From Loxodes magnus (lineage: Eukaryota > Ciliophora > Karyorelictea > Loxodida > Loxodidae): a stretch of 64,000 nucleotides of DNA. Both the position numbers and the translations under genes were made by a program. Shown piece by piece: positions 3,743-64,000 of the stretch. Below the pieces are notes generated by a model. That model ran no database searches, had not been told where the DNA came from, and was given only the letters and a program-made list of their open reading frames with translations. The stretch lies in assembly GCA_946699065.1 (NCBI GenBank), contig CAMPDV010000130.1, positions 62,001-126,000 on the forward strand, written 5' to 3'. Position 1 is the first letter of the stretch. The number at the start of each line of letters is the position of its first letter.

Positions 3743-3748
3743 TTTTTT

Positions 3749-9958: not shown

Positions 9959-9961
9959 AAA

Positions 9962-39951: not shown

Positions 39952-40310
39952 CAATATTAATATTTAATATTAAGAAAAATGTTCTCATGTTTCTTGTTAA
40001 ATCTCTAGAGGTCCGATGAGTTATGTCAGCTTCTCCAAATGGGGAATCTTCTTATTAAAATTTATTCTTAAATCTTGAGTAAAATGCTTCAGTCTTCTTG
40101 AATAAGGTCCAAATAAGAATTAGTTATTAAATCGGTATCTAGAAGGCCCGTCAGTCAAACTTTCATACTGCTAGAGAGAACCTTCGGGGTAATTTAGGTA
40201 TGTCTCAACGGAGCTTATCCACCCTTCCTCGTGGTGGCATCTAGTACGAGACTACTAGCAATACAGTATACACTGTACCAGATTACTCACTAATTTATCT
40301 GACACAGCCA
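39952..40310 (-). repeat. Retroelement 3' region
   Basis: GC-richer minus-strand sequence starting GAGTAATCTGGTACAG and containing GTCTCGTACTAGATGCC, CCACGAGGAAGGGTGG and ACGGGCCTTCTAG. It shares its first ~130 bp with 37372-37240 and leads into the stem-loop at 39951. It is the untranslated 3' part of a 5'-truncated element; no coding sequence is visible in it. Confidence 0.55.
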
Positions 40311-40695: not shown

Positions 40696-40760
40696 ATAAT
40701 AAATAAATAAATAAATTTGATTATAGAGCGCGTAGCACCTCGTTGGTGCGCAGCTCTTTA
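40696..40760 (-). repeat. Retroelement 3' stem-loop and (TTTA)n tail
   Basis: The best matched stem-loop: minus strand AAAGAGCTGCGCACC, loop AACGA, GGTGCTACGCGCTCTATAAT, followed by five TTTA units (40699-40715 on the plus strand as AAAT). It begins ten bases after the stop codon of the minus-strand ORF at 40770. Confidence 0.7.
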
Positions 40761-40769
40761 ATAAATGTT

Positions 40770-41153
40770 TCAATACATTTCTATTTCTTCAAGTAAGCCT
40801 TCAGGTAATAAAAATTCTTCTCTTAATAGTTCCATATCTTCCTCATTTTCATCTTCAATTTCTCTTGTTCTTCTGTCTTCTATCTATCTACGTTTTATTG
40901 ATTCTTTGTTACCAGCGTCCATTATTTTTTTTTACATACTTTGCTAATTTTCATTTCAAATTCTTTTCTTCTTAATCAAGCCTTTATAAACTCATAAAAA
41001 CTACCATTTCCTGCTCTATAATATTTTCCTATTTCTTTTTTTAATTCAATTTTCTTTTCTAAGTATCCTTTTTATCTTTTTTCTAATATGTTTTTGATAT
41101 AATCTTTTATAATCAAGTCAGTTTTAGCTCTTTTTTACTCTTCTTAGGTTCAT
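40770..41153 (-). CDS. Basic/acidic protein ending at a retroelement tail, 127 aa
   Basis: ATG 41153 to TGA 40772 in one frame. The first 75 residues are very basic (KKIKRILRKENWIKKRNRK) with five TGA read as Trp; the C-terminus is acidic (TREIEDENEEDMELLREEF, LPEGLLEEIEMY). The stop lies directly before the terminal stem-loop, so this is probably the 3'-most coding part of a retroelement ORF, although it lacks a knuckle and could be a host gene into whose 3' end the stem-loop belongs. The 60-codon plus-strand frame at 40765-40947 is its antisense. Confidence 0.5.
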
Positions 41154-41700: not shown

Positions 41701-41851
41701 AGGTAATTTTAAAAAGGGTTTTATAAAACGGATATATATATAATATTTATAGTGTATTATAATATATATAATACTTTTTTGTTATAAGCTAAAAAATAAA
41801 ACTTTTTTAAACCATATTCTTTAAAAAAAGTCATATACTTTAAATTTATTT

Positions 41852-42004
41852 TCATCTAACATAAAAACAAATTTTTTATTTGTAACCATATTAACACTTA
41901 AGATCACCATATTAATAGTACAAACATTTAAAGACTCTACAATATTTATTCATCTTTTTAAACATTTTTATCACATGTACATCATCTTTCGAAAAATCCA
42001 CCAT
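41852..42004 (-). CDS. Second small ORF of the array unit (ORF B), unit 1
   Basis: ATG 42004 to TGA 41854, 50 residues: MVDFSKDDVHVIKMFKKMNK followed by a segment with four Cys and several Tyr, ending KICFYVR. It starts 110 bp downstream of the secreted-protein stop on the same strand and recurs in all 25 units at 758-bp spacing, and in the partial one. No signal peptide. It may be a real small protein or only 3' untranslated sequence of ORF A. Confidence 0.25.
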
Positions 42005-42114
42005 AACAAATATTTTAAAAAAACTTAGATTCTCTCTTAAATTAGAAAAAACTTAAAAAGAATAATTACAGTTTGTTATAAAAGAATCCAAAAAAAATTA
42101 AAAATTGACTGTTT

Positions 42115-42369
42115 TCATGCCAAAAATCTTCTTGATTTCTATGAATTATTTCCCATCTCAATCATTTCTTAAGTGTCTTCTACTTTATTCTAGCAATCTG
42201 TCTGTTCTTCGCTTTCTACTTTTAGTTTATTCATATTTAAATTAGATCTTTTCTCCATTAAACTTCTATCCATCATCAATCTTTTCACTTTAGACTTGAA
42301 TTCTATTTCTTAAGTACCTTAAACATACATAACTACGACAATCAATAAAACTAAAAACACTATTCTCAT
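42115..42369 (-). CDS. Small secreted protein, array copy 1
   Basis: ATG 42369 to TGA 42117, 84 aa. Residues 1-18, MRIVFLVLLIVVVMYVQG, form a typical signal peptide: Arg, a hydrophobic core, small residue at the end. The mature part is short, hydrophilic and Met/Lys/Glu-rich, with one Cys (59) and dibasic sites KR29-30, KR40-41 and RR80-81, just before a Phe-Leu-Ala end. Four Gln codons are TAA and two TAG, so the gene is open only in the reassigned code; it has no TGA except its stop. The A-rich context TTATAAA precedes the ATG. If cut after the basic pairs it would release an 11- and a 40-residue peptide; that is inference. No known family recognised. Could be a pheromone, extrusome or defence peptide. 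Confidence 0.75.
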
Positions 42370-42394
42370 TTTATAATTTATCTGAATAAAATCT

Positions 42395-42447
42395 TATAAA
42401 TATAGACATCCATAAAACCGCCGTAACCACTTTTAAAACACGCAAAG
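42395..42447 (-). promoter_or_regulatory. GC-rich upstream element of the array gene, unit 1
   Basis: On the minus strand GTGGTTACGGCGG lies about 45-60 bp before the ATG, between GCGTGTTTTAAAA and TATATTTATAAG, a TATA-like sequence. It is the only GC-rich island of the 758-bp unit and its position just upstream of the gene suggests a promoter. Further upstream are TATATATATCCG and alternating AT runs. It recurs in each unit at 758-bp spacing. Confidence 0.35.
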
Positions 42448-42872
42448 TATATTATCATAGGTAATTTTAAAAAGGGTTTTATAAAACGGATATATATATA
42501 ATATTTATAGTGTATTATAATATATATAATACTTTTTTGTTATAAGCTAAAAAATAAAACTTTTTTAAACCATATTCTTTAAAAAAAGTCATATACTTTA
42601 AATTTATTTTCATCTAACATAAAAACAAATTTTTTATTTGTAACCATATTAACACTTAAGATCACCATATTAATAGTACAAACATTTAAAGACTCTACAA
42701 TATTTATTCATCTTTTTAAACATTTTTATCACATGTACATCATCTTTCGAAAAATCCACCATAACAAATATTTTAAAAAAACTTAGATTCTCTCTTAAAT
42801 TAGAAAAAACTTAAAAAGAATAATTACAGTTTGTTATAAAAGAATCCAAAAAAAATTAAAAATTGACTGTTT

Positions 42873-43127
42873 TCATGCCAAAAATCTTCTTGATTTCTAT
42901 GAATTATTTCCCATCTCAATCATTTCTTAAGTGTCTTCTACTTTATTCTAGCAATCTGTCTGTTCTTCGCTTTCTACTTTTAGTTTATTCATATTTAAAT
43001 TAGATCTTTTCTCCATTAAACTTCTATCCATCATCAATCTTTTCACTTTAGACTTGAATTCTATTTCTTAAGTACCTTAAACATACATAACTACGACAAT
43101 CAATAAAACTAAAAACACTATTCTCAT
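42873..43127 (-). CDS. Small secreted protein, array copy 2
   Basis: Unit 42459-43216. No difference from copy 1 noticed. Confidence 0.75.
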
Positions 43128-43630
43128 TTTATAATTTATCTGAATAAAATCTTATAAATATAGACATCCATAAAACCGCCGTAACCACTTTTAAAACACG
43201 CAAAGTATATTATCATAGGTAATTTTAAAAAGGGTTTTATAAAACGGATATATATATAATATTTATAGTGTATTATAATATATATAATACTTTTTTGTTA
43301 TAAGCTAAAAAATAAAACTTTTTTAAACCATATTCTTTAAAAAAAGTCATATACTTTAAATTTATTTTCATCTAACATAAAAACAAATTTTTTATTTGTA
43401 ACCATATTAACACTTAAGATCACCATATTAATAGTACAAACATTTAAAGACTCTACAATATTTATTCATCTTTTTAAACATTTTTATCACATGTACATCA
43501 TCTTTCGAAAAATCCACCATAACAAATATTTTAAAAAAACTTAGATTCTCTCTTAAATTAGAAAAAACTTAAAAAGAATAATTACAGTTTGTTATAAAAG
43601 AATCCAAAAAAAATTAAAAATTGACTGTTT

Positions 43631-43885
43631 TCATGCCAAAAATCTTCTTGATTTCTATGAATTATTTCCCATCTCAATCATTTCTTAAGTGTCTTCTACT
43701 TTATTCTAGCAATCTGTCTGTTCTTCGCTTTCTACTTTTAGTTTATTCATATTTAAATTAGATCTTTTCTCCATTAAACTTCTATCCATCATCAATCTTT
43801 TCACTTTAGACTTGAATTCTATTTCTTAAGTACCTTAAACATACATAACTACGACAATCAATAAAACTAAAAACACTATTCTCAT
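43631..43885 (-). CDS. Small secreted protein, array copy 3
   Basis: Unit 43217-43974. No difference from copy 1 noticed. Confidence 0.75.
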
Positions 43886-44388
43886 TTTATAATTTATCTG
43901 AATAAAATCTTATAAATATAGACATCCATAAAACCGCCGTAACCACTTTTAAAACACGCAAAGTATATTATCATAGGTAATTTTAAAAAGGGTTTTATAA
44001 AACGGATATATATATAATATTTATAGTGTATTATAATATATATAATACTTTTTTGTTATAAGCTAAAAAATAAAACTTTTTTAAACCATATTCTTTAAAA
44101 AAAGTCATATACTTTAAATTTATTTTCATCTAACATAAAAACAAATTTTTTATTTGTAACCATATTAACACTTAAGATCACCATATTAATAGTACAAACA
44201 TTTAAAGACTCTACAATATTTATTCATCTTTTTAAACATTTTTATCACATGTACATCATCTTTCGAAAAATCCACCATAACAAATATTTTAAAAAAACTT
44301 AGATTCTCTCTTAAATTAGAAAAAACTTAAAAAGAATAATTACAGTTTGTTATAAAAGAATCCAAAAAAAATTAAAAATTGACTGTTT

Positions 44389-44643
44389 TCATGCCAAAAA
44401 TCTTCTTGATTTCTATGAATTATTTCCCATCTCAATCATTTCTTAAGTGTCTTCTACTTTATTCTAGCAATCTGTCTGTTCTTCGCTTTCTACTTTTAGT
44501 TTATTCATATTTAAATTAGATCTTTTCTCCATTAAACTTCTATCCATCATCAATCTTTTCACTTTAGACTTGAATTCTATTTCTTAAGTACCTTAAACAT
44601 ACATAACTACGACAATCAATAAAACTAAAAACACTATTCTCAT
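44389..44643 (-). CDS. Small secreted protein, array copy 4
   Basis: Unit 43975-44732. No difference from copy 1 noticed. Confidence 0.75.
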
Positions 44644-45146
44644 TTTATAATTTATCTGAATAAAATCTTATAAATATAGACATCCATAAAACCGCCGTAA
44701 CCACTTTTAAAACACGCAAAGTATATTATCATAGGTAATTTTAAAAAGGGTTTTATAAAACGGATATATATATAATATTTATAGTGTATTATAATATATA
44801 TAATACTTTTTTGTTATAAGCTAAAAAATAAAACTTTTTTAAACCATATTCTTTAAAAAAAGTCATATACTTTAAATTTATTTTCATCTAACATAAAAAC
44901 AAATTTTTTATTTGTAACCATATTAACACTTAAGATCACCATATTAATAGTACAAACATTTAAAGACTCTACAATATTTATTCATCTTTTTAAACATTTT
45001 TATCACATGTACATCATCTTTCGAAAAATCCACCATAACAAATATTTTAAAAAAACTTAGATTCTCTCTTAAATTAGAAAAAACTTAAAAAGAATAATTA
45101 CAGTTTGTTATAAAAGAATCCAAAAAAAATTAAAAATTGACTGTTT

Positions 45147-45401
45147 TCATGCCAAAAATCTTCTTGATTTCTATGAATTATTTCCCATCTCAATCATTTC
45201 TTAAGTGTCTTCTACTTTATTCTAGCAATCTGTCTGTTCTTCGCTTTCTACTTTTAGTTTATTCATATTTAAATTAGATCTTTTCTCCATTAAACTTCTA
45301 TCCATCATCAATCTTTTCACTTTAGACTTGAATTCTATTTCTTAAGTACCTTAAACATACATAACTACGACAATCAATAAAACTAAAAACACTATTCTCA
45401 T
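45147..45401 (-). CDS. Small secreted protein, array copy 5
   Basis: Unit 44733-45490. No difference from copy 1 noticed. Confidence 0.75.
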
Positions 45402-45904
45402 TTTATAATTTATCTGAATAAAATCTTATAAATATAGACATCCATAAAACCGCCGTAACCACTTTTAAAACACGCAAAGTATATTATCATAGGTAATTTT
45501 AAAAAGGGTTTTATAAAACGGATATATATATAATATTTATAGTGTATTATAATATATATAATACTTTTTTGTTATAAGCTAAAAAATAAAACTTTTTTAA
45601 ACCATATTCTTTAAAAAAAGTCATATACTTTAAATTTATTTTCATCTAACATAAAAACAAATTTTTTATTTGTAACCATATTAACACTTAAGATCACCAT
45701 ATTAATAGTACAAACATTTAAAGACTCTACAATATTTATTCATCTTTTTAAACATTTTTATCACATGTACATCATCTTTCGAAAAATCCACCATAACAAA
45801 TATTTTAAAAAAACTTAGATTCTCTCTTAAATTAGAAAAAACTTAAAAAGAATAATTACAGTTTGTTATAAAAGAATCCAAAAAAAATTAAAAATTGACT
45901 GTTT

Positions 45905-46159
45905 TCATGCCAAAAATCTTCTTGATTTCTATGAATTATTTCCCATCTCAATCATTTCTTAAGTGTCTTCTACTTTATTCTAGCAATCTGTCTGTTCTTC
46001 GCTTTCTACTTTTAGTTTATTCATATTTAAATTAGATCTTTTCTCCATTAAACTTCTATCCATCATCAATCTTTTCACTTTAGACTTGAATTCTATTTCT
46101 TAAGTACCTTAAACATACATAACTACGACAATCAATAAAACTAAAAACACTATTCTCAT
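45905..46159 (-). CDS. Small secreted protein, array copy 6
   Basis: Unit 45491-46248. No difference from copy 1 noticed. Confidence 0.75.
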
Positions 46160-46662
46160 TTTATAATTTATCTGAATAAAATCTTATAAATATAGACATC
46201 CATAAAACCGCCGTAACCACTTTTAAAACACGCAAAGTATATTATCATAGGTAATTTTAAAAAGGGTTTTATAAAACGGATATATATATAATATTTATAG
46301 TGTATTATAATATATATAATACTTTTTTGTTATAAGCTAAAAAATAAAACTTTTTTAAACCATATTCTTTAAAAAAAGTCATATACTTTAAATTTATTTT
46401 CATCTAACATAAAAACAAATTTTTTATTTGTAACCATATTAACACTTAAGATCACCATATTAATAGTACAAACATTTAAAGACTCTACAATATTTATTCA
46501 TCTTTTTAAACATTTTTATCACATGTACATCATCTTTCGAAAAATCCACCATAACAAATATTTTAAAAAAACTTAGATTCTCTCTTAAATTAGAAAAAAC
46601 TTAAAAAGAATAATTACAGTTTGTTATAAAAGAATCCAAAAAAAATTAAAAATTGACTGTTT

Positions 46663-46917
46663 TCATGCCAAAAATCTTCTTGATTTCTATGAATTATTTC
46701 CCATCTCAATCATTTCTTAAGTGTCTTCTACTTTATTCTAGCAATCTGTCTGTTCTTCGCTTTCTACTTTTAGTTTATTCATATTTAAATTAGATCTTTT
46801 CTCCATTAAACTTCTATCCATCATCAATCTTTTCACTTTAGACTTGAATTCTATTTCTTAAGTACCTTAAACATACATAACTACGACAATCAATAAAACT
46901 AAAAACACTATTCTCAT
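46663..46917 (-). CDS. Small secreted protein, array copy 7
   Basis: Unit 46249-47006. No difference from copy 1 noticed. Confidence 0.75.
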
Positions 46918-47420
46918 TTTATAATTTATCTGAATAAAATCTTATAAATATAGACATCCATAAAACCGCCGTAACCACTTTTAAAACACGCAAAGTATAT
47001 TATCATAGGTAATTTTAAAAAGGGTTTTATAAAACGGATATATATATAATATTTATAGTGTATTATAATATATATAATACTTTTTTGTTATAAGCTAAAA
47101 AATAAAACTTTTTTAAACCATATTCTTTAAAAAAAGTCATATACTTTAAATTTATTTTCATCTAACATAAAAACAAATTTTTTATTTGTAACCATATTAA
47201 CACTTAAGATCACCATATTAATAGTACAAACATTTAAAGACTCTACAATATTTATTCATCTTTTTAAACATTTTTATCACATGTACATCATCTTTCGAAA
47301 AATCCACCATAACAAATATTTTAAAAAAACTTAGATTCTCTCTTAAATTAGAAAAAACTTAAAAAGAATAATTACAGTTTGTTATAAAAGAATCCAAAAA
47401 AAATTAAAAATTGACTGTTT

Positions 47421-47675
47421 TCATGCCAAAAATCTTCTTGATTTCTATGAATTATTTCCCATCTCAATCATTTCTTAAGTGTCTTCTACTTTATTCTAGC
47501 AATCTGTCTGTTCTTCGCTTTCTACTTTTAGTTTATTCATATTTAAATTAGATCTTTTCTCCATTAAACTTCTATCCATCATCAATCTTTTCACTTTAGA
47601 CTTGAATTCTATTTCTTAAGTACCTTAAACATACATAACTACGACAATCAATAAAACTAAAAACACTATTCTCAT
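47421..47675 (-). CDS. Small secreted protein, array copy 8
   Basis: Unit 47007-47764. No difference from copy 1 noticed. Confidence 0.75.
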
Positions 47676-48178
47676 TTTATAATTTATCTGAATAAAATCT
47701 TATAAATATAGACATCCATAAAACCGCCGTAACCACTTTTAAAACACGCAAAGTATATTATCATAGGTAATTTTAAAAAGGGTTTTATAAAACGGATATA
47801 TATATAATATTTATAGTGTATTATAATATATATAATACTTTTTTGTTATAAGCTAAAAAATAAAACTTTTTTAAACCATATTCTTTAAAAAAAGTCATAT
47901 ACTTTAAATTTATTTTCATCTAACATAAAAACAAATTTTTTATTTGTAACCATATTAACACTTAAGATCACCATATTAATAGTACAAACATTTAAAGACT
48001 CTACAATATTTATTCATCTTTTTAAACATTTTTATCACATGTACATCATCTTTCGAAAAATCCACCATAACAAATATTTTAAAAAAACTTAGATTCTCTC
48101 TTAAATTAGAAAAAACTTAAAAAGAATAATTACAGTTTGTTATAAAAGAATCCAAAAAAAATTAAAAATTGACTGTTT

Positions 48179-48433
48179 TCATGCCAAAAATCTTCTTGAT
48201 TTCTATGAATTATTTCCCATCTCAATCATTTCTTAAGTGTCTTCTACTTTATTCTAGCAATCTGTCTGTTCTTCGCTTTCTACTTTTAGTTTATTCATAT
48301 TTAAATTAGATCTTTTCTCCATTAAACTTCTATCCATCATCAATCTTTTCACTTTAGACTTGAATTCTATTTCTTAAGTACCTTAAACATACATAACTAC
48401 GACAATCAATAAAACTAAAAACACTATTCTCAT
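48179..48433 (-). CDS. Small secreted protein, array copy 9
   Basis: Unit 47765-48522. No difference from copy 1 noticed. Confidence 0.75.
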
Positions 48434-48936
48434 TTTATAATTTATCTGAATAAAATCTTATAAATATAGACATCCATAAAACCGCCGTAACCACTTTTAA
48501 AACACGCAAAGTATATTATCATAGGTAATTTTAAAAAGGGTTTTATAAAACGGATATATATATAATATTTATAGTGTATTATAATATATATAATACTTTT
48601 TTGTTATAAGCTAAAAAATAAAACTTTTTTAAACCATATTCTTTAAAAAAAGTCATATACTTTAAATTTATTTTCATCTAACATAAAAACAAATTTTTTA
48701 TTTGTAACCATATTAACACTTAAGATCACCATATTAATAGTACAAACATTTAAAGACTCTACAATATTTATTCATCTTTTTAAACATTTTTATCACATGT
48801 ACATCATCTTTCGAAAAATCCACCATAACAAATATTTTAAAAAAACTTAGATTCTCTCTTAAATTAGAAAAAACTTAAAAAGAATAATTACAGTTTGTTA
48901 TAAAAGAATCCAAAAAAAATTAAAAATTGACTGTTT

Positions 48937-49191
48937 TCATGCCAAAAATCTTCTTTATTTCTATGAATTATTTCCCATCTCAATCATTTCTTAAGTGTCT
49001 TCTACTTTATTCTAGCAATCTGTCTGTTCTTCGCTTTCTACTTTTAGTTTATTCATATTTAAATTAGATCTTTTCTCCATTAAACTTCTATCCATCATCA
49101 ATCTTTTCACTTTAGACTTGAATTCTATTTCTTAAGTACCTTAAACATACATAACTACGACAATCAATAAAACTAAAAACACTATTCTCAT
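48937..49191 (-). CDS. Small secreted protein, array copy 10 (S79Q variant)
   Basis: Unit 48523-49280. The only copy that differs: plus-strand G to T at 48956 turns the TCA codon for Ser79 into TAA. In the standard code this would be a nonsense change; in this organism's code it gives Gln (QKQRRFLA instead of QKSRRFLA), so the protein keeps its full length and the RR site. Confidence 0.75.
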
Positions 49192-49694
49192 TTTATAATT
49201 TATCTGAATAAAATCTTATAAATATAGACATCCATAAAACCGCCGTAACCACTTTTAAAACACGCAAAGTATATTATCATAGGTAATTTTAAAAAGGGTT
49301 TTATAAAACGGATATATATATAATATTTATAGTGTATTATAATATATATAATACTTTTTTGTTATAAGCTAAAAAATAAAACTTTTTTAAACCATATTCT
49401 TTAAAAAAAGTCATATACTTTAAATTTATTTTCATCTAACATAAAAACAAATTTTTTATTTGTAACCATATTAACACTTAAGATCACCATATTAATAGTA
49501 CAAACATTTAAAGACTCTACAATATTTATTCATCTTTTTAAACATTTTTATCACATGTACATCATCTTTCGAAAAATCCACCATAACAAATATTTTAAAA
49601 AAACTTAGATTCTCTCTTAAATTAGAAAAAACTTAAAAAGAATAATTACAGTTTGTTATAAAAGAATCCAAAAAAAATTAAAAATTGACTGTTT

Positions 49695-49949
49695 TCATGC
49701 CAAAAATCTTCTTGATTTCTATGAATTATTTCCCATCTCAATCATTTCTTAAGTGTCTTCTACTTTATTCTAGCAATCTGTCTGTTCTTCGCTTTCTACT
49801 TTTAGTTTATTCATATTTAAATTAGATCTTTTCTCCATTAAACTTCTATCCATCATCAATCTTTTCACTTTAGACTTGAATTCTATTTCTTAAGTACCTT
49901 AAACATACATAACTACGACAATCAATAAAACTAAAAACACTATTCTCAT
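49695..49949 (-). CDS. Small secreted protein, array copy 11
   Basis: Unit 49281-50038. Back to the common sequence (Ser79). Confidence 0.75.
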
Positions 49950-50452
49950 TTTATAATTTATCTGAATAAAATCTTATAAATATAGACATCCATAAAACCG
50001 CCGTAACCACTTTTAAAACACGCAAAGTATATTATCATAGGTAATTTTAAAAAGGGTTTTATAAAACGGATATATATATAATATTTATAGTGTATTATAA
50101 TATATATAATACTTTTTTGTTATAAGCTAAAAAATAAAACTTTTTTAAACCATATTCTTTAAAAAAAGTCATATACTTTAAATTTATTTTCATCTAACAT
50201 AAAAACAAATTTTTTATTTGTAACCATATTAACACTTAAGATCACCATATTAATAGTACAAACATTTAAAGACTCTACAATATTTATTCATCTTTTTAAA
50301 CATTTTTATCACATGTACATCATCTTTCGAAAAATCCACCATAACAAATATTTTAAAAAAACTTAGATTCTCTCTTAAATTAGAAAAAACTTAAAAAGAA
50401 TAATTACAGTTTGTTATAAAAGAATCCAAAAAAAATTAAAAATTGACTGTTT

Positions 50453-50707
50453 TCATGCCAAAAATCTTCTTGATTTCTATGAATTATTTCCCATCTCAAT
50501 CATTTCTTAAGTGTCTTCTACTTTATTCTAGCAATCTGTCTGTTCTTCGCTTTCTACTTTTAGTTTATTCATATTTAAATTAGATCTTTTCTCCATTAAA
50601 CTTCTATCCATCATCAATCTTTTCACTTTAGACTTGAATTCTATTTCTTAAGTACCTTAAACATACATAACTACGACAATCAATAAAACTAAAAACACTA
50701 TTCTCAT
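50453..50707 (-). CDS. Small secreted protein, array copy 12
   Basis: Unit 50039-50796. No difference from copy 1 noticed. Confidence 0.75.
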
Positions 50708-51210
50708 TTTATAATTTATCTGAATAAAATCTTATAAATATAGACATCCATAAAACCGCCGTAACCACTTTTAAAACACGCAAAGTATATTATCATAGGT
50801 AATTTTAAAAAGGGTTTTATAAAACGGATATATATATAATATTTATAGTGTATTATAATATATATAATACTTTTTTGTTATAAGCTAAAAAATAAAACTT
50901 TTTTAAACCATATTCTTTAAAAAAAGTCATATACTTTAAATTTATTTTCATCTAACATAAAAACAAATTTTTTATTTGTAACCATATTAACACTTAAGAT
51001 CACCATATTAATAGTACAAACATTTAAAGACTCTACAATATTTATTCATCTTTTTAAACATTTTTATCACATGTACATCATCTTTCGAAAAATCCACCAT
51101 AACAAATATTTTAAAAAAACTTAGATTCTCTCTTAAATTAGAAAAAACTTAAAAAGAATAATTACAGTTTGTTATAAAAGAATCCAAAAAAAATTAAAAA
51201 TTGACTGTTT

Positions 51211-51465
51211 TCATGCCAAAAATCTTCTTGATTTCTATGAATTATTTCCCATCTCAATCATTTCTTAAGTGTCTTCTACTTTATTCTAGCAATCTGTCTG
51301 TTCTTCGCTTTCTACTTTTAGTTTATTCATATTTAAATTAGATCTTTTCTCCATTAAACTTCTATCCATCATCAATCTTTTCACTTTAGACTTGAATTCT
51401 ATTTCTTAAGTACCTTAAACATACATAACTACGACAATCAATAAAACTAAAAACACTATTCTCAT
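51211..51465 (-). CDS. Small secreted protein, array copy 13
   Basis: Unit 50797-51554. No difference from copy 1 noticed. Confidence 0.75.
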
Positions 51466-51968
51466 TTTATAATTTATCTGAATAAAATCTTATAAATATA
51501 GACATCCATAAAACCGCCGTAACCACTTTTAAAACACGCAAAGTATATTATCATAGGTAATTTTAAAAAGGGTTTTATAAAACGGATATATATATAATAT
51601 TTATAGTGTATTATAATATATATAATACTTTTTTGTTATAAGCTAAAAAATAAAACTTTTTTAAACCATATTCTTTAAAAAAAGTCATATACTTTAAATT
51701 TATTTTCATCTAACATAAAAACAAATTTTTTATTTGTAACCATATTAACACTTAAGATCACCATATTAATAGTACAAACATTTAAAGACTCTACAATATT
51801 TATTCATCTTTTTAAACATTTTTATCACATGTACATCATCTTTCGAAAAATCCACCATAACAAATATTTTAAAAAAACTTAGATTCTCTCTTAAATTAGA
51901 AAAAACTTAAAAAGAATAATTACAGTTTGTTATAAAAGAATCCAAAAAAAATTAAAAATTGACTGTTT

Positions 51969-52223
51969 TCATGCCAAAAATCTTCTTGATTTCTATGAAT
52001 TATTTCCCATCTCAATCATTTCTTAAGTGTCTTCTACTTTATTCTAGCAATCTGTCTGTTCTTCGCTTTCTACTTTTAGTTTATTCATATTTAAATTAGA
52101 TCTTTTCTCCATTAAACTTCTATCCATCATCAATCTTTTCACTTTAGACTTGAATTCTATTTCTTAAGTACCTTAAACATACATAACTACGACAATCAAT
52201 AAAACTAAAAACACTATTCTCAT
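51969..52223 (-). CDS. Small secreted protein, array copy 14
   Basis: Unit 51555-52312. No difference from copy 1 noticed. Confidence 0.75.
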
Positions 52224-52726
52224 TTTATAATTTATCTGAATAAAATCTTATAAATATAGACATCCATAAAACCGCCGTAACCACTTTTAAAACACGCAAA
52301 GTATATTATCATAGGTAATTTTAAAAAGGGTTTTATAAAACGGATATATATATAATATTTATAGTGTATTATAATATATATAATACTTTTTTGTTATAAG
52401 CTAAAAAATAAAACTTTTTTAAACCATATTCTTTAAAAAAAGTCATATACTTTAAATTTATTTTCATCTAACATAAAAACAAATTTTTTATTTGTAACCA
52501 TATTAACACTTAAGATCACCATATTAATAGTACAAACATTTAAAGACTCTACAATATTTATTCATCTTTTTAAACATTTTTATCACATGTACATCATCTT
52601 TCGAAAAATCCACCATAACAAATATTTTAAAAAAACTTAGATTCTCTCTTAAATTAGAAAAAACTTAAAAAGAATAATTACAGTTTGTTATAAAAGAATC
52701 CAAAAAAAATTAAAAATTGACTGTTT

Positions 52727-52981
52727 TCATGCCAAAAATCTTCTTGATTTCTATGAATTATTTCCCATCTCAATCATTTCTTAAGTGTCTTCTACTTTAT
52801 TCTAGCAATCTGTCTGTTCTTCGCTTTCTACTTTTAGTTTATTCATATTTAAATTAGATCTTTTCTCCATTAAACTTCTATCCATCATCAATCTTTTCAC
52901 TTTAGACTTGAATTCTATTTCTTAAGTACCTTAAACATACATAACTACGACAATCAATAAAACTAAAAACACTATTCTCAT
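52727..52981 (-). CDS. Small secreted protein, array copy 15
   Basis: Unit 52313-53070. No difference from copy 1 noticed. Confidence 0.75.
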
Positions 52982-53484
52982 TTTATAATTTATCTGAATA
53001 AAATCTTATAAATATAGACATCCATAAAACCGCCGTAACCACTTTTAAAACACGCAAAGTATATTATCATAGGTAATTTTAAAAAGGGTTTTATAAAACG
53101 GATATATATATAATATTTATAGTGTATTATAATATATATAATACTTTTTTGTTATAAGCTAAAAAATAAAACTTTTTTAAACCATATTCTTTAAAAAAAG
53201 TCATATACTTTAAATTTATTTTCATCTAACATAAAAACAAATTTTTTATTTGTAACCATATTAACACTTAAGATCACCATATTAATAGTACAAACATTTA
53301 AAGACTCTACAATATTTATTCATCTTTTTAAACATTTTTATCACATGTACATCATCTTTCGAAAAATCCACCATAACAAATATTTTAAAAAAACTTAGAT
53401 TCTCTCTTAAATTAGAAAAAACTTAAAAAGAATAATTACAGTTTGTTATAAAAGAATCCAAAAAAAATTAAAAATTGACTGTTT

Positions 53485-53739
53485 TCATGCCAAAAATCTT
53501 CTTGATTTCTATGAATTATTTCCCATCTCAATCATTTCTTAAGTGTCTTCTACTTTATTCTAGCAATCTGTCTGTTCTTCGCTTTCTACTTTTAGTTTAT
53601 TCATATTTAAATTAGATCTTTTCTCCATTAAACTTCTATCCATCATCAATCTTTTCACTTTAGACTTGAATTCTATTTCTTAAGTACCTTAAACATACAT
53701 AACTACGACAATCAATAAAACTAAAAACACTATTCTCAT
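53485..53739 (-). CDS. Small secreted protein, array copy 16
   Basis: Unit 53071-53828. No difference from copy 1 noticed. Confidence 0.75.
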
Positions 53740-54242
53740 TTTATAATTTATCTGAATAAAATCTTATAAATATAGACATCCATAAAACCGCCGTAACCAC
53801 TTTTAAAACACGCAAAGTATATTATCATAGGTAATTTTAAAAAGGGTTTTATAAAACGGATATATATATAATATTTATAGTGTATTATAATATATATAAT
53901 ACTTTTTTGTTATAAGCTAAAAAATAAAACTTTTTTAAACCATATTCTTTAAAAAAAGTCATATACTTTAAATTTATTTTCATCTAACATAAAAACAAAT
54001 TTTTTATTTGTAACCATATTAACACTTAAGATCACCATATTAATAGTACAAACATTTAAAGACTCTACAATATTTATTCATCTTTTTAAACATTTTTATC
54101 ACATGTACATCATCTTTCGAAAAATCCACCATAACAAATATTTTAAAAAAACTTAGATTCTCTCTTAAATTAGAAAAAACTTAAAAAGAATAATTACAGT
54201 TTGTTATAAAAGAATCCAAAAAAAATTAAAAATTGACTGTTT

Positions 54243-54497
54243 TCATGCCAAAAATCTTCTTGATTTCTATGAATTATTTCCCATCTCAATCATTTCTTAA
54301 GTGTCTTCTACTTTATTCTAGCAATCTGTCTGTTCTTCGCTTTCTACTTTTAGTTTATTCATATTTAAATTAGATCTTTTCTCCATTAAACTTCTATCCA
54401 TCATCAATCTTTTCACTTTAGACTTGAATTCTATTTCTTAAGTACCTTAAACATACATAACTACGACAATCAATAAAACTAAAAACACTATTCTCAT
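54243..54497 (-). CDS. Small secreted protein, array copy 17
   Basis: Unit 53829-54586. No difference from copy 1 noticed. Confidence 0.75.
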
Positions 54498-55000
54498 TTT
54501 ATAATTTATCTGAATAAAATCTTATAAATATAGACATCCATAAAACCGCCGTAACCACTTTTAAAACACGCAAAGTATATTATCATAGGTAATTTTAAAA
54601 AGGGTTTTATAAAACGGATATATATATAATATTTATAGTGTATTATAATATATATAATACTTTTTTGTTATAAGCTAAAAAATAAAACTTTTTTAAACCA
54701 TATTCTTTAAAAAAAGTCATATACTTTAAATTTATTTTCATCTAACATAAAAACAAATTTTTTATTTGTAACCATATTAACACTTAAGATCACCATATTA
54801 ATAGTACAAACATTTAAAGACTCTACAATATTTATTCATCTTTTTAAACATTTTTATCACATGTACATCATCTTTCGAAAAATCCACCATAACAAATATT
54901 TTAAAAAAACTTAGATTCTCTCTTAAATTAGAAAAAACTTAAAAAGAATAATTACAGTTTGTTATAAAAGAATCCAAAAAAAATTAAAAATTGACTGTTT

Positions 55001-55255
55001 TCATGCCAAAAATCTTCTTGATTTCTATGAATTATTTCCCATCTCAATCATTTCTTAAGTGTCTTCTACTTTATTCTAGCAATCTGTCTGTTCTTCGCTT
55101 TCTACTTTTAGTTTATTCATATTTAAATTAGATCTTTTCTCCATTAAACTTCTATCCATCATCAATCTTTTCACTTTAGACTTGAATTCTATTTCTTAAG
55201 TACCTTAAACATACATAACTACGACAATCAATAAAACTAAAAACACTATTCTCAT
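55001..55255 (-). CDS. Small secreted protein, array copy 18
   Basis: Unit 54587-55344. No difference from copy 1 noticed. Confidence 0.75.
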
Positions 55256-55758
55256 TTTATAATTTATCTGAATAAAATCTTATAAATATAGACATCCATA
55301 AAACCGCCGTAACCACTTTTAAAACACGCAAAGTATATTATCATAGGTAATTTTAAAAAGGGTTTTATAAAACGGATATATATATAATATTTATAGTGTA
55401 TTATAATATATATAATACTTTTTTGTTATAAGCTAAAAAATAAAACTTTTTTAAACCATATTCTTTAAAAAAAGTCATATACTTTAAATTTATTTTCATC
55501 TAACATAAAAACAAATTTTTTATTTGTAACCATATTAACACTTAAGATCACCATATTAATAGTACAAACATTTAAAGACTCTACAATATTTATTCATCTT
55601 TTTAAACATTTTTATCACATGTACATCATCTTTCGAAAAATCCACCATAACAAATATTTTAAAAAAACTTAGATTCTCTCTTAAATTAGAAAAAACTTAA
55701 AAAGAATAATTACAGTTTGTTATAAAAGAATCCAAAAAAAATTAAAAATTGACTGTTT

Positions 55759-56013
55759 TCATGCCAAAAATCTTCTTGATTTCTATGAATTATTTCCCAT
55801 CTCAATCATTTCTTAAGTGTCTTCTACTTTATTCTAGCAATCTGTCTGTTCTTCGCTTTCTACTTTTAGTTTATTCATATTTAAATTAGATCTTTTCTCC
55901 ATTAAACTTCTATCCATCATCAATCTTTTCACTTTAGACTTGAATTCTATTTCTTAAGTACCTTAAACATACATAACTACGACAATCAATAAAACTAAAA
56001 ACACTATTCTCAT
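55759..56013 (-). CDS. Small secreted protein, array copy 19
   Basis: Unit 55345-56102. No difference from copy 1 noticed. Confidence 0.75.
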
Positions 56014-56516
56014 TTTATAATTTATCTGAATAAAATCTTATAAATATAGACATCCATAAAACCGCCGTAACCACTTTTAAAACACGCAAAGTATATTATC
56101 ATAGGTAATTTTAAAAAGGGTTTTATAAAACGGATATATATATAATATTTATAGTGTATTATAATATATATAATACTTTTTTGTTATAAGCTAAAAAATA
56201 AAACTTTTTTAAACCATATTCTTTAAAAAAAGTCATATACTTTAAATTTATTTTCATCTAACATAAAAACAAATTTTTTATTTGTAACCATATTAACACT
56301 TAAGATCACCATATTAATAGTACAAACATTTAAAGACTCTACAATATTTATTCATCTTTTTAAACATTTTTATCACATGTACATCATCTTTCGAAAAATC
56401 CACCATAACAAATATTTTAAAAAAACTTAGATTCTCTCTTAAATTAGAAAAAACTTAAAAAGAATAATTACAGTTTGTTATAAAAGAATCCAAAAAAAAT
56501 TAAAAATTGACTGTTT

Positions 56517-56771
56517 TCATGCCAAAAATCTTCTTGATTTCTATGAATTATTTCCCATCTCAATCATTTCTTAAGTGTCTTCTACTTTATTCTAGCAATC
56601 TGTCTGTTCTTCGCTTTCTACTTTTAGTTTATTCATATTTAAATTAGATCTTTTCTCCATTAAACTTCTATCCATCATCAATCTTTTCACTTTAGACTTG
56701 AATTCTATTTCTTAAGTACCTTAAACATACATAACTACGACAATCAATAAAACTAAAAACACTATTCTCAT
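56517..56771 (-). CDS. Small secreted protein, array copy 20
   Basis: Unit 56103-56860. No difference from copy 1 noticed. Confidence 0.75.
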
Positions 56772-57274
56772 TTTATAATTTATCTGAATAAAATCTTATA
56801 AATATAGACATCCATAAAACCGCCGTAACCACTTTTAAAACACGCAAAGTATATTATCATAGGTAATTTTAAAAAGGGTTTTATAAAACGGATATATATA
56901 TAATATTTATAGTGTATTATAATATATATAATACTTTTTTGTTATAAGCTAAAAAATAAAACTTTTTTAAACCATATTCTTTAAAAAAAGTCATATACTT
57001 TAAATTTATTTTCATCTAACATAAAAACAAATTTTTTATTTGTAACCATATTAACACTTAAGATCACCATATTAATAGTACAAACATTTAAAGACTCTAC
57101 AATATTTATTCATCTTTTTAAACATTTTTATCACATGTACATCATCTTTCGAAAAATCCACCATAACAAATATTTTAAAAAAACTTAGATTCTCTCTTAA
57201 ATTAGAAAAAACTTAAAAAGAATAATTACAGTTTGTTATAAAAGAATCCAAAAAAAATTAAAAATTGACTGTTT

Positions 57275-57529
57275 TCATGCCAAAAATCTTCTTGATTTCT
57301 ATGAATTATTTCCCATCTCAATCATTTCTTAAGTGTCTTCTACTTTATTCTAGCAATCTGTCTGTTCTTCGCTTTCTACTTTTAGTTTATTCATATTTAA
57401 ATTAGATCTTTTCTCCATTAAACTTCTATCCATCATCAATCTTTTCACTTTAGACTTGAATTCTATTTCTTAAGTACCTTAAACATACATAACTACGACA
57501 ATCAATAAAACTAAAAACACTATTCTCAT
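57275..57529 (-). CDS. Small secreted protein, array copy 21
   Basis: Unit 56861-57618. No difference from copy 1 noticed. Confidence 0.75.
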
Positions 57530-58032
57530 TTTATAATTTATCTGAATAAAATCTTATAAATATAGACATCCATAAAACCGCCGTAACCACTTTTAAAACA
57601 CGCAAAGTATATTATCATAGGTAATTTTAAAAAGGGTTTTATAAAACGGATATATATATAATATTTATAGTGTATTATAATATATATAATACTTTTTTGT
57701 TATAAGCTAAAAAATAAAACTTTTTTAAACCATATTCTTTAAAAAAAGTCATATACTTTAAATTTATTTTCATCTAACATAAAAACAAATTTTTTATTTG
57801 TAACCATATTAACACTTAAGATCACCATATTAATAGTACAAACATTTAAAGACTCTACAATATTTATTCATCTTTTTAAACATTTTTATCACATGTACAT
57901 CATCTTTCGAAAAATCCACCATAACAAATATTTTAAAAAAACTTAGATTCTCTCTTAAATTAGAAAAAACTTAAAAAGAATAATTACAGTTTGTTATAAA
58001 AGAATCCAAAAAAAATTAAAAATTGACTGTTT

Positions 58033-58287
58033 TCATGCCAAAAATCTTCTTGATTTCTATGAATTATTTCCCATCTCAATCATTTCTTAAGTGTCTTCTA
58101 CTTTATTCTAGCAATCTGTCTGTTCTTCGCTTTCTACTTTTAGTTTATTCATATTTAAATTAGATCTTTTCTCCATTAAACTTCTATCCATCATCAATCT
58201 TTTCACTTTAGACTTGAATTCTATTTCTTAAGTACCTTAAACATACATAACTACGACAATCAATAAAACTAAAAACACTATTCTCAT
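58033..58287 (-). CDS. Small secreted protein, array copy 22
   Basis: Unit 57619-58376. No difference from copy 1 noticed. Confidence 0.75.
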
Positions 58288-58790
58288 TTTATAATTTATC
58301 TGAATAAAATCTTATAAATATAGACATCCATAAAACCGCCGTAACCACTTTTAAAACACGCAAAGTATATTATCATAGGTAATTTTAAAAAGGGTTTTAT
58401 AAAACGGATATATATATAATATTTATAGTGTATTATAATATATATAATACTTTTTTGTTATAAGCTAAAAAATAAAACTTTTTTAAACCATATTCTTTAA
58501 AAAAAGTCATATACTTTAAATTTATTTTCATCTAACATAAAAACAAATTTTTTATTTGTAACCATATTAACACTTAAGATCACCATATTAATAGTACAAA
58601 CATTTAAAGACTCTACAATATTTATTCATCTTTTTAAACATTTTTATCACATGTACATCATCTTTCGAAAAATCCACCATAACAAATATTTTAAAAAAAC
58701 TTAGATTCTCTCTTAAATTAGAAAAAACTTAAAAAGAATAATTACAGTTTGTTATAAAAGAATCCAAAAAAAATTAAAAATTGACTGTTT

Positions 58791-59045
58791 TCATGCCAAA
58801 AATCTTCTTGATTTCTATGAATTATTTCCCATCTCAATCATTTCTTAAGTGTCTTCTACTTTATTCTAGCAATCTGTCTGTTCTTCGCTTTCTACTTTTA
58901 GTTTATTCATATTTAAATTAGATCTTTTCTCCATTAAACTTCTATCCATCATCAATCTTTTCACTTTAGACTTGAATTCTATTTCTTAAGTACCTTAAAC
59001 ATACATAACTACGACAATCAATAAAACTAAAAACACTATTCTCAT
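58791..59045 (-). CDS. Small secreted protein, array copy 23
   Basis: Unit 58377-59134. No difference from copy 1 noticed. Confidence 0.75.
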
Positions 59046-59548
59046 TTTATAATTTATCTGAATAAAATCTTATAAATATAGACATCCATAAAACCGCCGT
59101 AACCACTTTTAAAACACGCAAAGTATATTATCATAGGTAATTTTAAAAAGGGTTTTATAAAACGGATATATATATAATATTTATAGTGTATTATAATATA
59201 TATAATACTTTTTTGTTATAAGCTAAAAAATAAAACTTTTTTAAACCATATTCTTTAAAAAAAGTCATATACTTTAAATTTATTTTCATCTAACATAAAA
59301 ACAAATTTTTTATTTGTAACCATATTAACACTTAAGATCACCATATTAATAGTACAAACATTTAAAGACTCTACAATATTTATTCATCTTTTTAAACATT
59401 TTTATCACATGTACATCATCTTTCGAAAAATCCACCATAACAAATATTTTAAAAAAACTTAGATTCTCTCTTAAATTAGAAAAAACTTAAAAAGAATAAT
59501 TACAGTTTGTTATAAAAGAATCCAAAAAAAATTAAAAATTGACTGTTT

Positions 59549-59803
59549 TCATGCCAAAAATCTTCTTGATTTCTATGAATTATTTCCCATCTCAATCATT
59601 TCTTAAGTGTCTTCTACTTTATTCTAGCAATCTGTCTGTTCTTCGCTTTCTACTTTTAGTTTATTCATATTTAAATTAGATCTTTTCTCCATTAAACTTC
59701 TATCCATCATCAATCTTTTCACTTTAGACTTGAATTCTATTTCTTAAGTACCTTAAACATACATAACTACGACAATCAATAAAACTAAAAACACTATTCT
59801 CAT
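59549..59803 (-). CDS. Small secreted protein, array copy 24
   Basis: Unit 59135-59892. No difference from copy 1 noticed. Confidence 0.75.
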
Positions 59804-60306
59804 TTTATAATTTATCTGAATAAAATCTTATAAATATAGACATCCATAAAACCGCCGTAACCACTTTTAAAACACGCAAAGTATATTATCATAGGTAATT
59901 TTAAAAAGGGTTTTATAAAACGGATATATATATAATATTTATAGTGTATTATAATATATATAATACTTTTTTGTTATAAGCTAAAAAATAAAACTTTTTT
60001 AAACCATATTCTTTAAAAAAAGTCATATACTTTAAATTTATTTTCATCTAACATAAAAACAAATTTTTTATTTGTAACCATATTAACACTTAAGATCACC
60101 ATATTAATAGTACAAACATTTAAAGACTCTACAATATTTATTCATCTTTTTAAACATTTTTATCACATGTACATCATCTTTCGAAAAATCCACCATAACA
60201 AATATTTTAAAAAAACTTAGATTCTCTCTTAAATTAGAAAAAACTTAAAAAGAATAATTACAGTTTGTTATAAAAGAATCCAAAAAAAATTAAAAATTGA
60301 CTGTTT

Positions 60307-60561
60307 TCATGCCAAAAATCTTCTTGATTTCTATGAATTATTTCCCATCTCAATCATTTCTTAAGTGTCTTCTACTTTATTCTAGCAATCTGTCTGTTCT
60401 TCGCTTTCTACTTTTAGTTTATTCATATTTAAATTAGATCTTTTCTCCATTAAACTTCTATCCATCATCAATCTTTTCACTTTAGACTTGAATTCTATTT
60501 CTTAAGTACCTTAAACATACATAACTACGACAATCAATAAAACTAAAAACACTATTCTCAT
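60307..60561 (-). CDS. Small secreted protein, array copy 25 (last complete)
   Basis: Unit 59893-60650. The gene is complete, and its upstream 440 bp fall partly in the truncated last unit, which still carries the AT-rich upstream sequences. The next copy is missing because the array breaks at 61003, before the stop codon of a 26th gene would occur. Confidence 0.75.
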
Positions 60562-61003
60562 TTTATAATTTATCTGAATAAAATCTTATAAATATAGACA
60601 TCCATAAAACCGCCGTAACCACTTTTAAAACACGCAAAGTATATTATCATAGGTAATTTTAAAAAGGGTTTTATAAAACGGATATATATATAATATTTAT
60701 AGTGTATTATAATATATATAATACTTTTTTGTTATAAGCTAAAAAATAAAACTTTTTTAAACCATATTCTTTAAAAAAAGTCATATACTTTAAATTTATT
60801 TTCATCTAACATAAAAACAAATTTTTTATTTGTAACCATATTAACACTTAAGATCACCATATTAATAGTACAAACATTTAAAGACTCTACAATATTTATT
60901 CATCTTTTTAAACATTTTTATCACATGTACATCATCTTTCGAAAAATCCACCATAACAAATATTTTAAAAAAACTTAGATTCTCTCTTAAATTAGAAAAA
61001 ACT

Positions 61004-62017: not shown

Positions 62018-62468
62018 ATAGAATATTCAAAGAAAGATATTGCGACTAAAATTAAAAGAGCTTAAAATAGAAAAGGAAATTAGCATTTTGTGATTTATGA
62101 GTTGGAACTAAAATTTGCTTAGAAGTAAATAAGAAAAGAATCAGAGACTTTGATATTATTTAATAAAAATGGAATATTCTTCGCTTGAAAATGATAAAAT
62201 TAGATTTTATAAGAATAAATATAAGGAAGTTAATAATTTCTTTTATTTATCAATTATAAGCTATTTGAATTTATTTTATAACTTTTTTAATCTACCACTA
62301 TTTAAAAACAACTAGTAGTAAATAGATGATTTGAGTTTCTTAGATATTAGCTAAAATTATTATAAATTAGTGAAATTAAATAATAGTAGTTATTAATTTT
62401 ATTAATATAGCTTTCTATTTAAATGTTAATTTAGACTTATATTCCTTATTTATATCCTTAACTATAAT
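62018..62468. other. AT-rich divergent spacer
   Basis: Upstream region of the coiled-coil gene (minus) and the second Pmp-type gene (plus). No motif recognised; just before the ATG, ACTATAATATGAAATTA is shared with the upstream side of the paralogue at 23448. Confidence 0.4.
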
Positions 62469-64000
62469 ATGAAATTACCCAACTTAATTTTATAGTTAAG
62501 TTTATTTCAAATCCTTATTCAAAGCTTTTCAAATCAACTCATTCATTTCTATGTCACCACACCTGAAATTTCAAACCATCTAGGATTAACTCATCCAAAC
62601 GGATAAATAATTAACCCTTTTACTTCGTTATCTCGAACTCTGTACAATTTACCTGAAGGATCAGAAGCTTAAATTTGAATATCTCCACATAATCACACTC
62701 TAGAATGCCTAGACAGTTGTGATGAATGTGATGCTTGTTAGATTTTAAGAGCGAGTGATTTAAATAAAAATCCAATGAAAATTAAAATTTAAACTTTCGA
62801 TTGCTAAAATAATGAGTAGTATAGAGCAATGTGCTTAAACTCATAAGGCTAAGCCTTTTTACTTATAAAGAATCCTAACTTACATCTAAGTTTAAATGGA
62901 GACTCTCTTATGTTAAAGCACCTAACTATTAGCGGACATAGCTTGTACAAAGAATGTGATTAAAAATAATGCGCCTCTAATATATTCATTAAAGCTGAAA
63001 GGTCTTTTCTAGAATTTTATGAAGTAACTATTCAAGACTTTATTTTGGATTCTTCAAATTATATATCAATTACCTCTGGAGTAGCTAGATTTACTAATTT
63101 TACTATGCTAAATATTTTCACTTCCTCAAGTGCTATAAATACGAAAGATGCTACTATTGATATTATAAACTCCTATTTTATTGGAAATTAAGGAACTGTT
63201 TTTTACAGTATGCAGAGCATTTTATATGTGACCTAATCTCAATTTCTTTATAACTAAGCATTTCAAGGAAGCTGCATAAATTGCGATCAGTCAAGTTTGA
63301 TTGTTTCAAATTCCAGCTTTATATCCAACCATGCAGACGATAGAGGTGGTGCATTTTATGTAATTAACTCAAATTCCCATTTTAAAGATTCCATCTTTAT
63401 TAACAATTCTGCTTTAACTTGAGGAGGAGTTTTAGAGTCTATAGGATATTCAAATTATACAATTCAAAGTTGCTCTTTTATAAAAAATAAAGGTAATTCG
63501 GGTGGAGCATTTGGCTTAGTTATCGATACAGTTTTTTTAATTGATAATTGTATTTTCTAAGAAAACGAAGGATAATATGTAAGTTCAATCTCCTTTTATG
63601 GAGTAACTATCTATTAAATTTCAAACTCCATTTTCATTTCTAACAGAGTATATACGAGTGGAGGGGTAATCTGATTTGAATGAAGTACTGTAAACAATTT
63701 ATCAAACTTAACATTTATCCAAAATTCTGGATAATGAAAGGGAGGAGCTCTTTACATATCATCTTAAACTTTTATAGGCTCAATAGAAGAATCAATATTT
63801 TTGGAAAATAATGCTGAAAATGGAGGAGCAGTGAACATACAAGATAAGTCAATTGTTTATTCACTAAAAAATTGCTACTTTAGTAATAATAACTCTACAG
63901 CTGGAGGAGCTATACGATTATATGATTAAGCGATGAACTCAGTTGATGATAAAATGATAATTAAAAATTGTACTTTTATTAATAATCAAGCTGCTAACGG
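62469..64000 (+). CDS. Pmp-repeat surface protein, copy 2 (runs off the window)
   Basis: ATG 62469 (signal peptide MKLPNLILQLSLFQILIQS) and one uninterrupted frame to the window end, 510 codons. The N-terminal domain (ISNHLGLTHPNGQIINPFTS, LYNLPEGSEAQIW) is followed by Pmp-type repeats: NSALTWGGVLESIG, NKGNSGGAFGLVID, NNAENGGAVNIQDK, NNNSTAGGAIRLYD, NCTFINNQAANG. It is closely similar to the minus-strand copy 1 and intact where that copy has indels. Five TGA are read as Trp (AQIW, ALTWGG, VIWFEWS, GQWKGG); several are conserved as TGA in copy 1. By analogy with copy 1 the missing part should contain more repeats, a Cys-rich segment and the multi-TM region. Confidence 0.85.

What the first reader, a model, noticed from the sequence alone, without database searches (positions are those of the whole stretch)
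41701..61003. Twenty-five identical tandem genes for an 84-aa secreted protein
Seen: an exact 758-bp period over 18.95 kb, and in every unit a minus-strand frame with ATG, signal peptide, Gln encoded by TAA/TAG and a TGA end. Satellites do not normally encode a well-formed secreted protein, and ordinary gene families are not this homogeneous. Inference: high-dosage production of one short secreted product, kept uniform by recent amplification or gene conversion. I recognise no homologue, so this may be an undescribed secreted-peptide system of this ciliate.
Basis: partly seen in the sequence, partly recalled or inferred. Interest (0 to 1): 0.95.

Follow-up and report, generated by a model that had tools for sequence, protein, structure and literature searches.

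The report
Tandem array of secreted-protein genes
A ciliate chromosome carries 25 virtually identical head-to-tail copies of a gene for a small secreted protein, which repeat-finding software reports as a tandem repeat but which belongs to a conserved protein family.

Summary
Window 41702-61003 is 25 full 758-bp copies plus a 352-bp partial copy, with one base difference in the whole array. Each full copy has an 84-codon minus-strand frame with a signal peptide. Frame length is no evidence (1468 of 1500 shuffles match it), but the signal peptide and coding score are (0 of 1500 each).

The frame is a real gene, because it has relatives in the same genome: a solo copy 46 kb away, identical over 414 bp, and intact paralogs A, D, D2 and E. 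Array versus A gives dN/dS about 0.21; 22 of 20000 random placements gave as few amino-acid changes. The outside searches made found no relative.

The genome is 705,730,643 bp with UAA/UAG as Gln and UGA also used as sense. By inference it is the Loxodes magnus macronuclear assembly (706 Mbp in print). TRF with the published settings reports the array as a tandem repeat, so its genes were probably filtered out there.

High-dosage secretion is plausible but untested; passive amplification and a wrong copy number remain open.

The parts
41702..61003 (.). Tandem array: 25 full 758-bp units and a 352-bp partial unit
   Evidence: Self-comparison at offset 758 and unit-by-unit comparison; TRF with period up to 2000 gives 758 bp, 25.5 copies
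42115..42369 (-). 84-aa secreted-protein gene, copy 1; the other copies follow every 758 bp up to 60307-60561
   Evidence: Translation, shuffle tests, paralogs and dN/dS
48937..49191 (-). Copy 10 of the gene, the only variant (base 48956, Ser79 to Gln)
   Evidence: its row shows 4 TAA instead of 3
42370..42496 (-). Upstream part of the gene block of copy 1 (about 127 bp), with the conserved motif GGTTAnnGnGGTTTTATG
   Evidence: Shared with the solo copy; aligned with paralogs A and B
42076..42114 (-). End of the gene block of copy 1 after the stop codon (39 bp; 36 bp inside the identical core)
   Evidence: Edge of similarity to the solo copy; published median 3'-UTR 41 bp
41739..42075 (.). Spacer of copy 1 (337 bp, 17.8% GC), repeated in each unit
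   Evidence: Not shared with the solo copy; no strong match in the flanks or in C130:126001-196000
60652..61003 (.). Partial 26th unit (unit 1-352): first 37 bp of unit and spacer, no coding frame; upstream context of copy 25

Best explanation
This is a recent head-to-tail amplification of a complete, functional gene in the somatic genome of a karyorelict ciliate, by inference Loxodes magnus. The gene belongs to a small family of short proteins with an 18-residue signal peptide and then 66-99 polar, charged residues with one conserved cysteine. Each unit is a gene block (about 123 bp upstream, 255 bp coding, about 36 bp after the stop) plus a 337-bp spacer. A 414-bp identical block also sits alone 46 kb away. 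Shown: the array, the frame, the family, purifying selection between paralogs, sharp block edges. Inferred: that each copy is transcribed, that the protein is secreted or packed into secretory granules, that the copies raise dosage, and that the array grew by unequal recombination or by insertion of a circle-derived concatemer.
For: Shuffle tests of signal peptide and coding score, 0 of 1500 each. Paralogs in the same genome found by protein search: 28 matches with the array protein, 27 with A, 29 with D. Array versus A dN 0.187, dS 0.888; 22 of 20000 random placements as good; the proposed frame is the best conserved of six. A versus D BLASTP E 2e-08, hhalign probability 95%. Ten invariant columns in five members. 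Solo copy identical over a 414-bp core with sharp edges, about one minimal gene. Upstream region conserved too. Coding frame 27.5% GC against 15.4% just downstream and 17.8% in the spacer.
Against: No transcript or peptide data were available. Coding GC (27.5%) is below the published L. magnus mean of 33.5%, and TAA at codon 67 lies within the roughly 20 codons before the stop where UAA is reported depleted. The one difference inside the array is non-synonymous. In maximal sub-segment scoring, other frames of the unit also reach 9.5-9.7, against 16.7. Purine richness explains part of the coding score: 25 of 5000 shuffles of the frame itself reach it. The protein fold is unresolved. Family members lie in one genome only.
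Confidence: 0.6

Rival explanations
1. Passive amplification: a real gene was caught in an ordinary satellite-forming event in a genome rich in tandem repeats. The array is neutral; the solo copy and the paralogs do the work, and the extra copies are silent or irrelevant.
For: 231 of 706 Mbp of the L. magnus macronuclear assembly are reported as tandem repeats (PMC11441545 section 8). The contig starts with a 20.6-kb array of a 123-bp satellite. The near identity of the copies fits a young array as well as a selected one.
Against: All 25 copies keep an open frame, but a young array would too. The block edges fall close to the gene's own ends, which favours duplication of a working gene without proving use.
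Confidence: 0.27
2. The copy number is an assembly artefact: a short array or a few copies were expanded or mis-joined by the assembler.
For: The L. magnus authors attribute the difference between their two assembly sizes to misassembly of low-complexity repeats. One mismatch in 18,950 bp leaves almost nothing to anchor reads.
Against: The copy-10 variant shows that not every unit is a clone of one read segment. The gene itself stands on the solo copy and paralogs whatever the number.
Confidence: 0.08
3. A non-coding or germline-limited satellite, or a structural-RNA array, in which the frame is fortuitous.
For: Ciliate germ lines hold satellites (PMC5405496 and PMC3491425, passages). The excess of G over C on the minus strand covers the whole unit (0.57 in the frame, 0.30 in unit 1-413, 0.45 in 669-758; at most 0.39 in 115 flank windows).
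Against: Paralogous coding frames under purifying selection. No Rfam match, no tRNA, folding z-score -1.55 with 2 of 20 shuffles folding as well. By size the assembly is the macronuclear one, from a species reported to lack extensive DNA elimination.
Confidence: 0.03

Closest known systems
Unidirectional tandem single-exon gene blocks of the dinoflagellate Polarella glacialis (PMC7245778; passages)
   Same: Same gene head to tail on one strand, proposed to raise expression
   Different: Other protein functions (ice-binding, light harvesting and others); intergenic parts of ice-binding blocks average over 94% identity, while here whole units are 100% identical but for one base
Tandem LRR gene clusters of Tetrahymena (PMC6564038; passages)
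   Same: Tandem duplicates in a ciliate; largest strict cluster in ten species has 17 genes
   Different: Large multi-exon LRR genes; those assemblies were short-read, so near-identical arrays could be collapsed (the second half is my inference)
Satellite DNA of ciliate germ lines, e.g. the Oxytricha 170-bp repeat (PMC3491425; passages)
   Same: Long near-identical head-to-tail array
   Different: Here each unit holds a gene with paralogs under purifying selection, and the assembly is by inference macronuclear
Ciliate secretory-granule matrix proteins and peptide pheromones (recalled, not compared by sequence with named members)
   Same: Short proteins with signal peptides
   Different: No Pfam or PDB sequence match; one conserved cysteine only; no heptad pattern above shuffles

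Membership tests
Protein-coding tandem gene array | Head-to-tail near-identical units, each with a complete frame | tested here: met
   25 of 25 full units, one with a single base change
Protein-coding tandem gene array | The frame is under purifying selection | tested here: met
   Array versus A dN/dS about 0.21, 22 of 20000; D versus D2 dN 0.018, dS 0.046 from 8 changes, weak by itself
Protein-coding tandem gene array | The units are transcribed | not testable with these tools
   No RNA-seq on hand
Classical (non-coding) satellite | No conserved coding content | tested here: not met
   Paralogous frames with signal peptides elsewhere in the genome
Loxodes magnus macronuclear assembly | Assembly size 706 Mbp | tested here: met
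Karyorelict code (table 27) | UAA and UAG as Gln, UGA as sense or stop | tested here: met
   Five in-frame TAA in a Pfam endonuclease stretch; four shared and two unshared in-frame TGA in a diverged gene pair; in-frame TGA at codon 40 of paralog E. That UGA reads Trp was not tested; the tubulin search meant for it did not complete
Secreted protein with signal peptide | Basic N-terminus, hydrophobic core, small residues at -3 and -1 | tested here: met
   Simple rule of my own, no dedicated predictor: array, A and D; D2 has D's first 18 residues and E fits by eye
Dibasic-processed peptide precursor | Conserved KR/RR sites between signal peptide and mature peptide | tested here: inconclusive
   Three sites in the array protein, 407 of 10000 shuffles have as many; two are kept in A, not in D
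Ciliate granule-matrix protein (Grl/Tmp; features recalled) | Coiled-coil-rich acidic proprotein | tested here: not met
   Heptad pattern not above shuffles, 2372 of 3000 reach it; 12 acidic and 13 basic residues after the signal peptide

The most novel reading that the evidence does not exclude
Part of the large tandem-repeat compartment of Loxodes (a third of its somatic assembly), treated as low-complexity repeats in print, is gene arrays. This one amplifies a secreted signalling or defence protein of a karyorelict-specific family to set its dosage, in a macronucleus that is not extensively edited as those of other studied ciliates are.
Probability: 0.25. Interest if true: 0.75.

Novelty: new member of a known kind. 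Interest (0 to 1): 0.55.

Why it matters
It shows that an array which standard repeat filters report as a tandem repeat can consist of intact genes whose family is under selection. That makes a direct question for Loxodes: how much of its 231 Mbp of tandem repeats is coding? It also describes a family of short proteins with signal peptides and no relative in the outside searches made, and gives a concrete case for studying dosage by tandem amplification in a ciliate.

Tried and rejected
Structural RNA: no Rfam match at the gathering threshold (window) or at E up to 1 (two units), no tRNA or tmRNA, fold z-score -1.55.

Tetrahymena micronuclear DNA, my early guess: the breakage-sequence pattern gave 28 matches with 3 mismatches, 26 of them one site repeated in the array; telomere-like repeats not beyond chance; the genome size ruled it out. 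Papers seen for it: PMC5182062 and PMC13368176, passages only.

Other frames of the unit: the six other ATG frames of 30 aa or more have negative coding scores, though sub-segments of other frames reach 9.5-9.7; Pfam gave nothing above its cut-offs for four of them.

Fold: single-sequence AlphaFold2 gave one long helix (pLDDT 87.5, pTM 0.45). With a three-sequence alignment confidence fell to 66.3 (pTM 0.28), and amphipathicity and heptads did not exceed shuffles (2920 and 2372 of 3000 reach the observed values). I draw no fold and ran no fold search.

PDB profile matches (best E 0.06 with 3 sequences; best 0.2 with 5) and the Pfam Gastrin and GLE1 matches (E 0.07-0.08, below cut-off) are chance level and set aside.

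Age: 1 difference in 18,950 bp with the T. thermophila rate of 7.61e-12 per site per division (PMC5585995, abstract) would allow some millions of divisions (my arithmetic). The rate for Loxodes is unknown, so near identity does not demand gene conversion.

Relatives of paralog E: the search with E did not complete, so the family may be larger. Only 334 kb of the 715-kb contig C130 and three short pieces of C244 and C245 were read.

Flank genes: Pfam scans covered 35 TGA-free flank frames in all (9, 10, 6, 10), not every frame; two flank proteins had no relative in the large protein database.
Full report
WHAT IS THERE. Comparing the window with itself at offset 758 gives unbroken identity from 41702 to 61003, apart from one base. 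Unit by unit there are 25 full copies and 352 bp of a 26th. Copy 10 differs at 48956 (unit position 433), turning codon 79 from TCA to TAA, Ser to Gln. The 84-codon frame lies at unit 414-668 on the minus strand, with TAA at codons 17, 20 and 67, TAG at 60 and 77, and TGA at 85.

IS THE FRAME MORE THAN CHANCE. Length proves nothing when TGA is the only stop: 1468 of 1500 dinucleotide shuffles of the unit hold a frame of 84 aa or more. A signal-peptide-like frame occurs in 0 of 1500, and a coding score of 12.3 or more in 0 of 1500. The coding model was trained on TGA-free frames of the window's flanks, so it is rough. Against shuffles of the frame's own 252 bp, 25 of 5000 reach the score and 1 of 5000 does so while open. 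In the flanks 0 of 473 ATG starts pass the strict or the relaxed signal-peptide rule, and 2 of 473 a very relaxed one. The rule was set after seeing the frame; paralogs A and D, found later, pass it too.

THE GENOME AND THE ORGANISM. The whole-genome search answered after many failures. The assembly has 705,730,643 bases in 7843 contigs, and the window is contig C130:62001-126000 of 715 kb. The Loxodes magnus paper gives 706 Mbp for its macronuclear long-read assembly and table 27, where UGA is stop or Trp by context (PMC11441545; passages; sections 8, 9, 26 and 30). The window fits that code: five in-frame TAA in a Pfam endonuclease stretch, and four shared plus two unshared in-frame TGA in an 82% identical duplicated pair.

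A GENE FAMILY. The first DNA search with the unit listed four places and not the array itself, since it skips very common words. Searching the genome with the array protein at E up to 10 gave 28 matches: the 25 array copies, a solo copy at C130:169299-169550, paralog A at C130:149577-149894 and a weak match on C244 (E 0.018). Read in full, the C244 locus holds an intact 117-aa frame with signal peptide, paralog D (C244:242607-242960). A search with A gave 27 matches: A and 26 array-family places. A search with D gave 29: D, a near copy D2 (C244:418784), E (C245:218639) and 26 array-family places, but not A. A versus D is BLASTP E 2e-08 as a single comparison; the profile of array and A against D gives hhalign probability 95%. 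Five sequences align with ten invariant columns, among them one cysteine; E entered with 106 of its residues. Two more members are damaged or partial: B around C130:134371-134752, with an apparent frameshift, and C at C130:151893-151998, a 3' piece. The outside searches found no relative: protein database (no candidate), Pfam, PDB sequences, viral contigs, prokaryote genomes by one 27-base pattern. No ciliate transcriptome or second ciliate genome could be searched.

SELECTION. Array versus A over 45 aligned codons: 31 base changes, dN 0.187, dS 0.888. Placing the same base changes at random gives 14 or fewer amino-acid differences in 22 of 20000 trials. Of six frames, the proposed one is best conserved: 31 of 45 residues identical, BLOSUM sum 166 against 112-124. 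D versus D2: dN 0.018, dS 0.046, from 8 changes only. Both pairs point to purifying selection; the second is weak by itself.

ANATOMY OF THE UNIT. The solo copy and the array unit share a 421-bp block with two mismatches, both within four bases of its ends; the inner 414 bp are identical, and similarity stops outside (19 and 22 of 60 bases). The core holds about 123 bp upstream, the 255-bp frame and about 36 bp after the stop. Published L. magnus 3'-UTRs have a median of 41 bp, so the block is about one minimal gene. The upstream part aligns with A (75 of 119 bases) and with B, with GGTTAnnGnGGTTTTATG in all. The rest of the unit is a 337-bp spacer of 17.8% GC with no strong match in the flanks or in C130:126001-196000. 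The array ends at different unit positions on its two sides, so it may have been inserted as a concatemer or trimmed; this is inference.

WHY IT COULD BE MISSED. The L. magnus authors ran TRF with period up to 2000, kept regions of 1 kb or more and intersected gene predictions with them (sections 26 and 30). The same TRF settings on 334 kb of the contig report this array as one of two regions of 1 kb or more, the other being a 20.6-kb array of a 123-bp satellite. That the array genes were dropped from the published set is my inference; I did not see the gene set.

HOW IT PROBABLY WORKS. The most likely reading is a gene for a secreted protein whose copy number rose recently, each copy with its own upstream region. 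Whether the copies are expressed and raise output is untested. The neutral reading, a gene caught up in satellite growth, is a serious rival in a genome with so many tandem repeats. The fold is unresolved. Processing at dibasic sites is only suggested: 407 of 10000 shuffles have as many, and the sites are not kept in D. Against the reading: the frame's GC (27.5%) is below the published coding mean (33.5%), and a TAA lies 18 codons before the stop, where UAA is reported depleted.

COMPARISON. Tandem gene blocks are known in dinoflagellates (PMC7245778, passages). Tetrahymena's largest strict tandem cluster in ten species has 17 LRR genes (PMC6564038, passages). Five literature searches aimed at coding satellites or multicopy secreted-peptide genes in ciliates or at Loxodes listed nothing like it; I saw listings and abstract openings there, and the library holds open-licence papers only. 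The kind is known; the protein family and its near-perfect array are new to the sources searched.

Noticed in passing
window 21926-23840 and 62068-64000: An inverted duplication, 82% identical, of a frame with beta-helix-like (Chlam_PMP) repeats; four in-frame TGA are shared by both copies.
   Followed up: partly
window 3732-3810, 39891-39983, 40699-40772: Three copies of an approximately 80-bp dispersed repeat; the two on the right carry a hairpin-like GC-rich part next to a TAAA-type repeat, perhaps a retroelement 3' end.
   Followed up: no
window 9500-10360: Endonuclease-reverse-transcriptase fragment (Pfam Exo_endo_phos_2, E 8.6e-08), a LINE-type remnant with five in-frame TAA in the matched stretch.
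   Followed up: partly
window 2478-2843, 9500-10360, 13553-14302: Three frames share an N-terminal EGFK.GF-like motif; possibly a small gene family or part of a mobile element.
   Followed up: no
contig C130:1-20605 (L012-L014): A 20.6-kb satellite of 123-bp units, about 167 copies, 97% matches, at the contig start.
   Followed up: no
L032 and L033 (C244:242607-242960 and 418784-419134): Paralogs D and D2 lie about 176 kb apart on opposite strands with similar flanking sequence, so a larger segment was duplicated.
   Followed up: no
window 41702-61003: The minus strand has far more G than C over the whole unit, beyond the coding frame, more than in any of 115 flank windows.
   Followed up: partly
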